Of a DNA stretch of 64,000 nt, positions 37,460 through 41,612 are shown in pieces. Where the stretch lies: contig NC_004113.1 in assembly GCF_000011345.1 (NCBI RefSeq), forward strand, positions 930,001 to 994,000, written 5' to 3'. This DNA comes from Thermosynechococcus vestitus BP-1. Lineage in GTDB: Bacteria; Cyanobacteriota; Cyanobacteriia; Thermosynechococcales; Thermosynechococcaceae. The first letter of the stretch is position 1. The number at the start of each line of letters is the position of its first letter. The notes beneath the pieces were generated by a model. That model worked only from the letters and a program-made list of their open reading frames with translations, ran no database searches and had not been told where the DNA came from. Made by a program: the position numbers and the translations under genes.

Positions 37460-37768
37460 TTAGTTTCGGAATTGCTCCACTGCCTCGGTATAGCGAATGG
37501 GCAATACGTACTCAAGGTTTTCGTGGGGACGGGCAATAATGTGCGTGGACAGCACCTCTCCGCCATTGACACGCTTGGCAGAATCGACCCCGGCAGCTAC
37601 TGACGCTTGCACTTCGGAGACATCACCCCGCACAATCACGGTGACCCGCCCACTCCCAATTTTTTCGTAGCCCACCAGGGTAACCCGAGCGGCTTTGACC
37701 ATTGCATCTGCTGCTTCGACGACGGCGGGAAATCCGCGCGTTTCAATCATTCCCACAGCAATTGGCAT
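37460..37768 (-). CDS. ccmK2: Carboxysome shell protein CcmK2
   Basis: Major hexameric facet protein, 102 residues, BMC domain throughout ([20 protein letters not shown], then [20 protein letters not shown]) ending EAVEQFRN. First gene of the operon; a 97-base gap separates it from ccmK1. The start at 37768 has AGGAGAG upstream. The high identity to ccmK1, including long stretches of the DNA, indicates a recent duplication or gene conversion. Confidence 0.95.
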
Positions 37769-37906
37769 GAGTAAGCTCTCCTAATTAGAATAAGGGTAAG
37801 CAGGACAAAAGCTAGAGTTGCAATCAGAGCGATCGCTACAGAAAATAATGACGGGATAGCCGATTGTTATCGTAACGTTAATCACCGTCTTTCTATCTCT
37901 AAAACA

Positions 37907-37935
37907 AGCATAGGGTGAGGGGTTTCTTTTGACAA
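37907..37935 (-). promoter_or_regulatory. Sigma-70-like promoter for the ccm operon
   Basis: Minus-strand TTGTCA (37930-37935), a 17-base spacer and TATGCT (37907-37912) form a good -35/-10 pair. Transcription from about 37900 would give a 130-base leader before ccmK2. The leader holds the palindrome TAACGTTA (37873-37880) within a GATT...AATC inverted context, a possible operator. The rest of 37769-38179 is AT-rich non-coding DNA with the end of the Argonaute transcript. Confidence 0.5.
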
Positions 37936-38179
37936 TATAACGATTGATAATCTTTTCTACTTTCTCGTATTATCAGATCTAATTTTAAGCACCTGATGCC
38001 GCTTTCAACTCAAGACAGGCCAATACAAATCGCGTAACTCATAGAATTTTATCTAAAGACAATCATCTTCATCATCGGCTAATTGCCCGATTTAAGAGGC
38101 TTCTGCCTATACTTGGGTAAGTTGCATAGGTTATTTCAATTTTGTTCTCTACTTTGATAGATTAAAGTCTATTTTCTCG

Positions 38180-40372
38180 TCAAACAGCAATTAACTTTTC
38201 TCGATCAACATTCTGCAAAAGGCTGATCTGACCTATCCGCTGAAACTCCTTACTACTCCGATCAGCCAAGTGCAGTACCCAAGGCAGCCGGCAGGAGCGA
38301 AATCCGCTGGCAGGATGCAATTGAGTCAAGTGATAGGTCTGCAAAGCCAGTAGCTCTAAAGGTGTATTGCCGTAGTGACGCACAACCCGCAGAGGTCTAG
38401 CACTACCAAGGGGGCCAGTTTTCGTCTTGATGACCTCAGTGGTTTGTAATATAAATGAGTCAGTTGCAGAATAAAAAATTACAGTGCCCACTTCAGCATC
38501 ATCATAGGTTATTGCGGTATTGCCTGAAGTCAATTCACGTCCCATCCTCCCCGAGCCACTCTTACGGACACTTAAGATATCGACATCGATACCCTGGTGA
38601 GTTAGTTCTCTGATTGTTTGTTCAAACTCCCCGTCTTGAACAAGCCCGTCCCGCATCAGTAGGATCTTCTTAGGGTAAGAATCATAGTTGTCTTGGAATT
38701 TCAGCACTAGCTTAGACACAACTTGCCAAATGGATTGACCAGAGAAAGTTTCGCCCCGTTGTATATCTGGCAACTCCCAACCCAAGCTTTGACCATTGGC
38801 TAAAATTGCAAAAGCAGACGTACCATAGTACAGCCTTCGGTTTGTACTGGTGTCAAAACCGATAATTAAGTCAGCAGCCTGAGGATCATCTAATGGTTTT
38901 AGATAGACAGGCTGCCACTTAGCTTTACACAACAGTCCCAAGGCAACATTGAGAGCTTTGTAGGGATTATCCTGGGGTGTGGGTATCATGAACTGAGTAG
39001 CGATTCCCGCCTTTAATGCCTGAATTCGTAGCCTTGTTTTCTCCTCATGGGGGGACCAAGGCATCACTACTAAAACAGTTTTAATTCCTTGAGCAGCCCA
39101 TTGTTGCCAAAATCGTTGTTGAGCTAAATCATCTTTTGGATAGTCACTTCCTGTAAAGTAGGAGTCTATTTTTATCTGTACCCCACTACTTCTTGCTATT
39201 GCCAGTAAACATTTGTGTACTTCCTCTGGATACTCGGGTTTATTATCAAATAAATTTAGGCAGCCGAATTTTGTTTCGCCAATCTTGGCACAGCCAAAGG
39301 ATTTAATTCTAGCTGTTTGATTGACTTCTTTATTGTTTCGAGCTAATAGTTTTGCACGAGGCATGACAAAACCATTAACTTTCATTATCTCTGGCTGACT
39401 ACTGAGATTATAAACGTTTTTGAAAATGACCTGAGCTATTTTTTGTGATTCTTGCAAACGTGTACCAATGTTTTTCCTGATGTAGTCAAAAACACCTTGA
39501 ATTTCCTTTTTTTCTCTTCCTTGTTCAGCAATTTGCGCTAACGTTTCCATTGTGAGAATTGGTGATAGTCTTTGAGACAAATGATATACTGGCTTAGCCT
39601 TGTAGTCGCTGATTTTCTTAACAATTACAACTCGGGACTCATCTATTTCTTGTTGAGTTGCTCCCTCTTGACGGTGATACTCTGCTAGGCTTATTCCTAG
39701 GGCTTCTATTTGTATTTCATTTGGACTTTTGTCCGCAAAATTTTCAAGGATCCACTTTTTCTTATCTTTGTAGGTATTCCTCACGTACTTGATTTGGATA
39801 TTAGGATATTCACTGAGCCACCACTCAAGTTTGAATGGAGTATAAAATCGATGATGAATATCAATTTCTAAGTATAATTTTTCATCTGTTTCTATTTTGA
39901 GATCAATTTGTCTGCCTCTATGTACTTCCCAGCCATGACCTGTTTTTTCTAACCCTTCTTCGCCAGAAATCCACCAAATCAACCCTAATTCATAGTCTTT
40001 TTCAATTATAGTTTTCTTAAATGTTTCTTTTAACTTTTCCTCTAGAATTTTTCTTTCAAAGGTTTCCAGAGCCTGCCTTTCACGATAATTTTGACAGCTC
40101 AGTTCTCTACATCCTATTAGCTGTAACTGCCAATCCTTAGTTCGCATTCTCTCAGGGTCAATAGGCTCCCTTGTAATAATGCAGCTCCCTAGTCGAACAG
40201 CAGTGACTCCTAGTTTGTAGCAAACACTGGAAATAGCTTTTTGCTCGCTACCTTGTTCTGGCACTTGAGTAAATTGGCATTGGTATTCATGAAATGTAAG
40301 ATCAGGTCGACTCAATTTTTTTACAAAAAAACGATTGAGTATAACTTCAACTTCTTGGAATTGGGTGGGCAT
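38180..40372 (-). CDS. Prokaryotic Argonaute nuclease (long, catalytic DEDD)
   Basis: Guide-dependent nuclease of 730 residues with the long-Argonaute layout: N, PAZ (about 150-260), MID (about 400-505) and PIWI. The catalytic tetrad is complete: Asp507 (IGFDTS), Glu541 (QRGETFSG), Asp575 (LMRDG) and Asp704 (HLADRS). The 34-residue spacings between the first three are the same as in Thermus Argonaute. The MID region (SPHEEKTRLRIQALKAG, TQFM, CKAKWQP) has Lys/Gln/Lys in the order of the 5'-phosphate pocket. The start at 40372 (MPTQFQE) is preferred; 26 extra codons upstream lack a ribosome site. The gene is AT-richer than its neighbours and has no HIP1 octamer. No partner nuclease or helicase is adjacent. 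Expected to act on DNA with small DNA guides; inferred. Confidence 0.95.
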   Translation of the reverse strand: MPTQFQEVEVILNRFFVKKLSRPDLTFHEYQCQFTQVPEQGSEQKAISSVCYKLGVTAVRLGSCIITREPIDPERMRTKDWQLQLIGCRELSCQNYRERQALETFERKILEEKLKETFKKTIIEKDYELGLIWWISGEEGLEKTGHGWEVHRGRQIDLKIETDEKLYLEIDIHHRFYTPFKLEWWLSEYPNIQIKYVRNTYKDKKKWILENFADKSPNEIQIEALGISLAEYHRQEGATQQEIDESRVVIVKKISDYKAKPVYHLSQRLSPILTMETLAQIAEQGREKKEIQGVFDYIRKNIGTRLQESQKIAQVIFKNVYNLSSQPEIMKVNGFVMPRAKLLARNNKEVNQTARIKSFGCAKIGETKFGCLNLFDNKPEYPEEVHKCLLAIARSSGVQIKIDSYFTGSDYPKDDLAQQRFWQQWAAQGIKTVLVVMPWSPHEEKTRLRIQALKAGIATQFMIPTPQDNPYKALNVALGLLCKAKWQPVYLKPLDDPQAADLIIGFDTSTNRRLYYGTSAFAILANGQSLGWELPDIQRGETFSGQSIWQVVSKLVLKFQDNYDSYPKKILLMRDGLVQDGEFEQTIRELTHQGIDVDILSVRKSGSGRMGRELTSGNTAITYDDAEVGTVIFYSATDSFILQTTEVIKTKTGPLGSARPLRVVRHYGNTPLELLALQTYHLTQLHPASGFRSCRLPWVLHLADRSSKEFQRIGQISLLQNVDREKLIAV

Positions 40373-40508
40373 CACTGATAGGGAGTCTATTGGCAGCCAG
40401 CCATATTGGGATGGCGTTGTTCGTTTATCGTAGCAAGTTTCCCTTGGCATTAGGAATCATTAGCCAAGATAGAATCGTCATGGATATTCACGGGTGTGGA
40501 GTGCTTGT

Positions 40509-41612
40509 ATGCTGCGGTTACCCATTCAACCAATCTGGCAGAGGCTTTCTCAATGGCCAGTGTGGGAGCCAAACCGGCTGGCGATCGCCAGTTCAATTCT
40601 TTTGCACGCCGTTATCCTTTCCTTTGTGCGTGTCCCCGAACCCACCCCCCCAGAGTTGGCCAGTGATCAACTGGTGCCCTTGGTCAGTCTTTCTCCAGAA
40701 CTAGAAGCGGATCTGCCATCTATCCAACCCCTCTTGCCTACAGAACTACCACCCCTGGCCACCACCACACCACCGCCGCTGCCGTTTACAGGCATTGAGC
40801 CACCCCCCCTTTCCTTTGCCCCCTTGGCGCCGCTGCCCCCCTTATCGCCCCCACTCCTTCCCAATCCAGTGCCGGTGCAGCCTTTGCCCCCCCTGTGGCA
40901 ATTGCCCCCGCCCACCCGCCCCTTACCGGTTGTGCCCACAGGACCCAACGAAGAGGTTGCCGTTGCTCCAGAACTGGTCTCACCAACTCCCGCATCTCCA
41001 GCGAATGAGCCGATCGCCCGTACCGCAGGGGAAGCAGCAGCAGCTTTGTCCCGTTGGTTTAATCAAACGCGGTCAACACTGAATACAACAGATATTCAAG
41101 TGAATTTTGCTCAGCGCATTACGGACTTTTATCCTCAGGAGGCCTGTGGCGATCGCCTACAGGGGGAAACAATGGTTGCGGTGGTCGTCACTCCCCAAGG
41201 TGAATTGCTCCCTGCAAATGCGGCCCCAGAAACGGGCTTGCTCACCCGCAATCCCCAAATTATTCGCAGCAGTGGCTCTGCGCTCTTGGATCAGGCAGCT
41301 TTAGAACAAGTACAAAAGCAAGCTTTTGAGGCCACCGGCAAATATCAAGCCCTAGCGATCACCTTTGCCTTTGAGTATCGTCCTGAGAGGTGCCTGCCCC
41401 CTGCTGCAACCCCCCGCCAAGAACCCACTGCGCCAGCCCCTAGCCCCTCTGGGGCTGATCAGGCTTCACCCCTAGCCCCTGAGGAAGTGACCCCTGCACC
41501 AAGCTCTCCCGCTCCGGAGGTGGCACCACCGGCTGTCTCCCCAGACCCTAGCGAGGCAGACTCGTCGTCTGTAGCGCCGGCTGCGAGTCCGCCAGCAACA
41601 TCTCCCGAATAA
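40509..41612 (+). CDS. TonB-like proline-rich envelope protein
   Basis: 367 residues from the ATG at 40509 (GGAG seven bases upstream). A short N-terminus and one membrane helix (LAIASSILLHAVILSFV) are followed by a long Pro-rich spacer (PPPLPFTGIEPPPLSF region) and a C-terminal domain resembling TonB (ETMVAVVVTPQGELLP, SGSALLDQAALEQVQKQAF). A Pro/Ala/Ser-rich tail follows. This is the layout of energy transducers that span the periplasm, so transfer of proton-motive energy to outer-membrane receptors is plausible. No ExbBD genes are adjacent. The last 65 bases overlap the convergent ABC1 kinase gene. Confidence 0.75.
   Translation: MLRLPIQPIWQRLSQWPVWEPNRLAIASSILLHAVILSFVRVPEPTPPELASDQLVPLVSLSPELEADLPSIQPLLPTELPPLATTTPPPLPFTGIEPPPLSFAPLAPLPPLSPPLLPNPVPVQPLPPLWQLPPPTRPLPVVPTGPNEEVAVAPELVSPTPASPANEPIARTAGEAAAALSRWFNQTRSTLNTTDIQVNFAQRITDFYPQEACGDRLQGETMVAVVVTPQGELLPANAAPETGLLTRNPQIIRSSGSALLDQAALEQVQKQAFEATGKYQALAITFAFEYRPERCLPPAATPRQEPTAPAPSPSGADQASPLAPEEVTPAPSSPAPEVAPPAVSPDPSEADSSSVAPAASPPATSPE

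What the first reader, a model, noticed from the sequence alone, without database searches (positions are those of the whole stretch)
38180..40372. Full-length catalytic Argonaute directly upstream of the carboxysome operon
The PIWI tetrad Asp507-Glu541-Asp575-Asp704 is complete, with the same 34-residue spacing of the first three residues as in Thermus Argonaute, and the protein has PAZ and MID. No helicase, nuclease or partner gene is adjacent. A thermophilic cyanobacterial host makes it an interesting DNA-guided nuclease candidate.
Basis: partly seen in the sequence, partly recalled or inferred. Interest (0 to 1): 0.8.

Follow-up and report, generated by a model that had tools for sequence, protein, structure and literature searches.

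The report
Solo Argonaute nuclease beside carboxysome genes
The gene is a complete, probably working DNA-cutting Argonaute of a known cyanobacterial type that has nothing to do with the carboxysome genes next to it; the surprise is elsewhere: close relatives of this gene move between hot-spring cyanobacteria as integron cassettes, and every Thermosynechococcus genome examined keeps an Argonaute even after losing the one at this site.

Summary
Window 40372..38180 (minus) encodes a full-length long-A prokaryotic Argonaute (730 aa). Its DEDD tetrad (D507, E541, D575, D704) aligns with Thermus TtAgo D478/E512/D546/D660, PAZ and MID are present, and the 5'-phosphate pocket is conserved. It is about 58% identical to an Argonaute that I infer to be SeAgo, and about 29% identical to TtAgo. 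No partner gene recurs among 24 related loci, and the carboxysome neighbour is incidental. Most likely it is a DNA-guided DNA nuclease acting alone against incoming DNA (inferred; activity not shown). As a protein it is a new member of a known kind, already mentioned in a 2023 survey.

Comparative work added two things. (1) The gene is vertical at this site in six species. It is deleted in two lineages (three genomes) that still carry 3' relics, yet each carries a different Argonaute elsewhere. All 11 genus genomes have one, against 27 of 379 other cyanobacterial genomes. (2) In Gloeomargaritales, a P. lividus-like genome, MAG UBA999 and one Thermosynechococcus MAG, the related Argonaute is an integron gene cassette with an attC site and matching cassette ends. 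I found no report of a cassette-borne Argonaute. The window copy has no attC.

The parts
38180..40372 (-). long-A Argonaute gene, 730 aa
39560..39823 (-). PAZ domain (Pfam PAZ_3, residues 184-271)
   Evidence: E 2e-37
38987..39295 (-). MID domain (residues 360-462); conserved K445, R449, Q460 here and K483 at 38924-38926, aligned with TtAgo R418, K422, Q433, K457 (5'-phosphate pocket)
   Evidence: below curated cut-off; all four columns invariant in 15 homologues
38852..38854 (-). catalytic D507
38750..38752 (-). catalytic E541
38648..38650 (-). catalytic D575
38261..38263 (-). catalytic D704 (H in the sister DEDH clade)
40373..40493 (.). divergent intergenic region between Ago and the TonB-like gene, with conserved blocks that run through the 26-codon upstream extension; likely Ago promoter region
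   Evidence: conservation only; no transcript data
37769..38179 (-). leader/promoter region of ccmK2; its ccm-proximal part is conserved in genomes without this Ago; in G006, G008 and G009 it holds relics of the Ago 3' end
37460..37768 (-). ccmK2-type shell protein, first gene of the carboxysome run (context, not a partner)
40494..41612 (+). TonB_C-domain protein, left border gene of the site (context)

Best explanation
The gene encodes a solo long-A Argonaute of the SeAgo type. Most likely it binds short 5'-phosphorylated DNA guides in the MID pocket, holds their 3' end in PAZ, and cuts complementary DNA with a DEDD/Mg2+ PIWI site, lowering natural transformation and plasmid maintenance as SeAgo does in S. 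elongatus. SHOWN here by sequence: full domain set, intact tetrad, intact 5'-phosphate pocket, whole-length TtAgo-like fold prediction, purifying selection, vertical descent at this locus in six species, deletion at this locus in two other lineages that carry another Argonaute elsewhere, no conserved partner gene, carboxysome adjacency incidental. INFERRED from relatives: guide and target chemistry and the anti-foreign-DNA role. The gene's wider family spreads by horizontal transfer, and in one clade as integron gene cassettes; the window copy itself is now a fixed chromosomal gene without an attC site.
For: TtAgo alignment and fold; tetrad and pocket conserved; 58% identity to the G058 Ago, G058 being inferred to be S. 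elongatus from chromosome size, whose SeAgo is a DNA-guided DNA nuclease and limits transformation and RSF1010 plasmids (PMC10653904; PMC10269773). dN/dS 0.16-0.41 between syntenic copies, with dS close to that of the flanking aarF. Synteny in six genomes and deletion relics in three. No shared neighbour among 24 loci beyond local synteny and one Uma2-like pair. All 11 genus genomes carry a pAgo, against 27 of 379 other cyanobacterial genomes.
Against: No biochemical or expression data. MID is below the Pfam curated cut-off and Pfam Piwi does not match. The PIWI active-site loop at residues 510-517 is predicted with low confidence. The near-universal presence in the genus could also point to a chromosomal housekeeping role rather than defence.
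Confidence: 0.75

Rival explanations
1. The protein's main job is chromosomal: like TtAgo it helps finish and separate replicated chromosomes, which is why every genome of the genus keeps an Argonaute even when the copy at this site is lost.
For: 11/11 genomes have one; the site-A gene is lost in two lineages (three genomes) but a different Ago is present elsewhere in each. SeAgo and LrAgo aid division of gyrase-inhibited E. coli and load guides from the terminus (PMC10269773).
Against: In its own host SeAgo gave no protection and its deletion had no growth effect. Rapid turnover, low-GC foreign composition (41% against 55-56% in flanks) and cassette mobility in relatives fit an accessory or defence role better.
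Confidence: 0.2
2. The gene is functionally tied to the carboxysome operon next to it (co-transcribed or co-regulated).
For: Same strand; the ccmK2 start lies 411 bp downstream; gene order conserved in six species.
Against: The ccm upstream region is conserved without this Ago in G003, G006, G008, G009 and G010. Other Agos sit next to recO, leuB, lpxB-like genes or attC arrays.
Confidence: 0.03
3. The window Ago itself arrived as an integron cassette and later lost its attC.
For: Relatives 62-64% identical are cassettes, and a DUF305 cassette with attC has landed at the end of the carboxysome operon in G001, about 3.5 kb from its Ago.
Against: No attC and no cassette-end pair at this site in any of the six species; DNA shared with Ago-less genomes resumes within about 10-15 bp of the stop codon. 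The Ago family tree does not place site A inside the cassette clade.
Confidence: 0.12
4. It is an inactive or decaying Argonaute.
For: Related copies do decay: three relics at this site, an insertion in the VI4D9 copy.
Against: Open frames, intact tetrad and purifying selection in all six site-A copies.
Confidence: 0.03

Closest known systems
SeAgo, Synechococcus elongatus PCC 7942 (long-A pAgo)
   Same: Domain layout, DEDD tetrad, same cyanobacterial clade, about 58% identity (to the Ago of G058, inferred to be S. elongatus from its size)
   Different: Thermophilic host; different genomic site; guide and target chemistry untested
TtAgo, Thermus thermophilus
   Same: Whole-length homology and fold, 34/34 tetrad spacing, 5'-phosphate pocket positions
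   Different: About 29% identity; TtAgo is plasmid-borne in Thermus, this one is chromosomal; 129 instead of 114 residues between third and fourth catalytic residue
Sedentary chromosomal integrons / attC-only arrays (CALIN)
   Same: Ago relatives in G003, G044, VI4D9, UBA999 and G008 carry attC sites with R and L arms, compensatory pairs and matching cassette ends
   Different: Cargo is a long-A Argonaute, which I did not find reported; the window copy lacks attC

Membership tests
long-A prokaryotic Argonaute | N-PAZ-MID-PIWI, full length | tested here: met
long-A prokaryotic Argonaute | DEDX catalytic tetrad | tested here: met
   DEDD at 507/541/575/704
long-A prokaryotic Argonaute | MID 5'-phosphate binding residues | tested here: met
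   K445, R449, Q460, K483 aligned with TtAgo R418, K422, Q433, K457, invariant in 15 homologues; MID Pfam score below cut-off
long-A prokaryotic Argonaute | guide-dependent target cleavage | not testable with these tools
   needs protein
SeAgo-type cyanobacterial clade | groups with SeAgo and other DEDX cyanobacterial pAgos | tested here: met
   tree; 58% to G058, whose naming as S. elongatus is an inference. TtAgo was not in the tree.
pAgo with co-encoded partner (Cas4, PLD, helicase, nuclease) | partner gene in the same operon, conserved across loci | tested here: not met
   no recurrent neighbour in 24 loci apart from one Uma2-like pair; Pfam Cas4 absent from own genome
integron gene cassette (window copy) | attC 3' of the gene and matching cassette 5' end | tested here: not met
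   (0 attC in whole genome)
integron gene cassette (relatives G003a, G044, G008a, UBA999, VI4D9) | attC 3' of the gene with paired R/L arms; cassette 5' end complementary to the outer arm | tested here: met
   99.6% cells paired, 4 pairs with compensatory change; E 1e-20 to 1e-21 at the 3' attC of G003a, G044, UBA999 and VI4D9; G008a keeps only the first arm of its 3' attC, its second copy G008b has the full attC but lacks the matching 5' end; 11-nt GTTATCTCTAC/GTAGAGATAAC, shuffles at most 0.003
integron gene cassette (relatives) | integron integrase in the genome | tested here: inconclusive
   intact only in G224 (467 bits, cut-off 265); fragments in G010, G044, G062, G086, G032; none in G003 or G008

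The most novel reading that the evidence does not exclude
Long-A Argonaute is a mobile integron cassette that circulates among hot-spring cyanobacteria of different orders, and Thermosynechococcus species effectively never go without an Argonaute: when the inherited carboxysome-side copy is deleted, another lineage (cassette or not) stands in for it. This would make the integron a named vehicle for Argonaute transfer and would imply strong selection for at least one Argonaute per genome.
Probability: 0.55. Interest if true: 0.68.

Novelty: new member of a known kind. Interest (0 to 1): 0.5.

Why it matters
More broadly, surveys agree that prokaryotic Argonautes spread horizontally but I found none naming the integron as a vehicle. 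The cassette architecture found in close relatives gives one, and the lost-but-replaced pattern in the genus makes the question of whether Argonaute is dispensable testable by genome sampling and knock-out.

Tried and rejected
Carboxysome link: rejected by conservation of the ccm leader in genomes without this Ago and by Agos at other sites. Longer 756-aa start: rejected by comparison. Partner genes: none recur; Cas4 family absent in own genome and scattered in relatives. DEDH-type Ago relics at the leuB and recO sites of site-A species: none found by tblastn. attC at the window site: none. Viral contigs: no relative. Plasmids: only Thermus and Hydrogenophilus homologues, best about 30%. The concatenated aarF + ccmM species tree leaves the order among G001, G005, G007 and the root only weakly resolved, so I rely on relics rather than on reconciliation. 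The repeated Ago in MAG G008 may be a true duplication (two copies 99.8% identical, different flanks) and was not resolved.

Full report
WHAT IS THERE. The window is bases 930001-994000 of a single 2,593,857-bp chromosome. From memory that is the size of Thermosynechococcus elongatus BP-1; this naming is an inference. It is backed by same-genus genomes whose contigs match records titled Thermosynechococcus (contig lengths 120228, 43921 and 9545). The minus-strand ORF 40450..38180 is 756 aa from its first ATG. The start at 40372 (730 aa) is better: the six syntenic species share only that ATG; G001 has no earlier ATG; G005 and G007 carry a TAA upstream; and conserved non-coding blocks run through the would-be extension.

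PROTEIN. phmmer finds T. thermophilus Argonaute end to end (E 2e-70); PADLOC pAgo scores 1024 bits; Pfam PAZ_3 E 2e-37. Pfam Ago_Mid (20.5 bits) is under its cut-off, and Pfam Piwi does not fire, so annotation by Pfam alone would miss the catalytic domain. D507, E541, D575 and D704 align with TtAgo D478, E512, D546 and D660. Homologues show DEDD, or DEDH in a Thermosynechococcus-only clade. K445, R449, Q460 and K483 align with the TtAgo 5'-phosphate pocket (R418, K422, Q433, K457; pocket roles from general knowledge) and are invariant in 15 homologues. AlphaFold with 15 sequences gives pLDDT 85.7 and pTM 0.83; Foldseek's best 33 hits are all TtAgo structures. Identity to the Argonaute of G058 is 58%. 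G058 (2,696,255 bp) is S. elongatus by size, again from memory, so this is probably SeAgo, a DNA-guided DNA nuclease that limits transformation and RSF1010 plasmids.

CONTEXT. The order TonB-like / Ago / ccmK2 / ccmK1 / ccmL / ccmM / ccmN is conserved in G000, G001, G002, G004, G005 and G007, although in G001 ccmN is broken. Ago GC is 41% (GC3 35%) against 55-56% in the flanks (aarF GC3 61%). Ago dS between species is close to that of the neighbouring aarF, and dN/dS is 0.16-0.41, so the gene has descended vertically here under purifying selection, looser than on aarF. The ccm leader is conserved in genomes that lack this Ago, so the carboxysome link is incidental. Among 24 Ago loci no neighbour recurs beyond local synteny and one Uma2-like pair.

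LOSS AND REPLACEMENT. In G008 the TonB-like gene and ccmK are adjacent with no Ago, but the spacer keeps 82-84 bp of the Ago 3' end (82-88% identical, E down to 4e-25). G009 keeps two collinear pieces (47 and 59 bp) and G006 30 bp, both next to a shared rearrangement. So the gene was present in the ancestor of these lineages and was lost at least twice. Each of the three has another Argonaute: G008 a 64%-identical DEDD copy next to attC sites, and G006 and G009 DEDH copies beside leuB. The deeper pair G003 and G010 have DEDH copies beside recO, and G003 also has a second, cassette-borne DEDD copy. All 11 genus genomes have an Argonaute, against 27 of 379 other Cyanobacteriia genomes, 38 of 390 in total. 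The sample is small and the genomes are related; the Ago of G006 is cut by a contig end. The order of events (gain of the second Argonaute before or after loss of the first) is not known.

INTEGRON CASSETTES. G003 and G044 (a Gloeomargaritales relative, same family as VI4D9) share 2.5 kb at 97% DNA identity: the Ago and little else. The block ends are direct repeats. They are attC sites: TAACAAATCACTGCACCCGACC...GGCGGGTGAGTTCAGCCGTTA, 19 copies aligned, a 13-pair stem 99.6% paired with compensatory changes at four pairs, far above slid controls. A covariance model finds attC flanking or following Ago in L026, L027, L029, L071 and L082, and weakly in Chlorogloea L070 and in G008a L028. The cassette 5' end GTTATCTCTAC is the exact reverse complement of GTAGAGATAAC at the 3' attC in five loci (shuffles at most 0.003), the signature of a cassette that once closed on itself. 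Whole-genome counts: 40, 23 and 10 attC in three genomes of the Gloeomargaritales family, 13 in UBA999/G224, 12 in G010, 8 in G003, 0 in the window's genome. An intact integron integrase is in G224 (467 bits, cut-off 265); broken pieces are in G010, G044, G062, G086 and G032. Integrons in cyanobacteria are known. I found no paper in the library on an Argonaute in a cassette, and the 2018 pAgo census never mentions integrons; subscription papers were not searchable.

MECHANISM. Most likely the window protein is a solo DNA-guided DNA nuclease acting on incoming DNA. The steps shown are fold prediction, active site, guide pocket, selection and solo context. Guide type, target type and in vivo role are inferred from SeAgo and TtAgo. 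The main rival is a chromosomal role as in TtAgo.

VERDICT. Observation confirmed; interpretation supported; protein a new member of a known kind. The added value is the turnover in the genus and the cassette vehicle in close relatives.

Noticed in passing
L027 6718-10917 (G003), L026 8021-10485 (G044), L082 4106-15826 (VI4D9), L071 12191-12284 (UBA999): Long-A Argonaute relatives lie as gene cassettes in integron attC arrays; G003 and G044, of different families, share the same cassette at 97% DNA identity with different neighbours.
   Followed up: yes
L024 14424-15292 (G001): A DUF305/CopM-like gene with its own attC has inserted between a broken ccmN and trmA, i.e. an integron-type cassette at the end of the carboxysome operon about 3.5 kb from the Ago.
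   Followed up: partly
L130 1501-2580 (G224/UBA999); L131, L139 (G010): Intact integron integrase in UBA999; a broken integron integrase (in-frame TAG) in G010, which also has 12 attC sites including a cluster at 1736102-1742184.
   Followed up: partly
L028 5471-6202 (G008): A Cmr2 N-terminal fragment (type III CRISPR) lies next to the Ago; the Ago is present twice on this MAG contig (99.8% identical).
   Followed up: no
L082 8752-9994 (VI4D9): The cassette Argonaute is split by an inserted opposite-strand gene (343 aa, perhaps a transposase; not searched).
   Followed up: no
L027 10996-11763 (G003): A NYN plus OST-HTH/LOTUS protein (putative RNase) lies directly downstream of the Ago cassette array.
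   Followed up: no
L036 and L037 (G009, G006): At the leuB site the two DEDH Argonautes are only about 60% identical while the adjacent leuB proteins are about 94% identical, suggesting allelic replacement or very fast evolution.
   Followed up: partly
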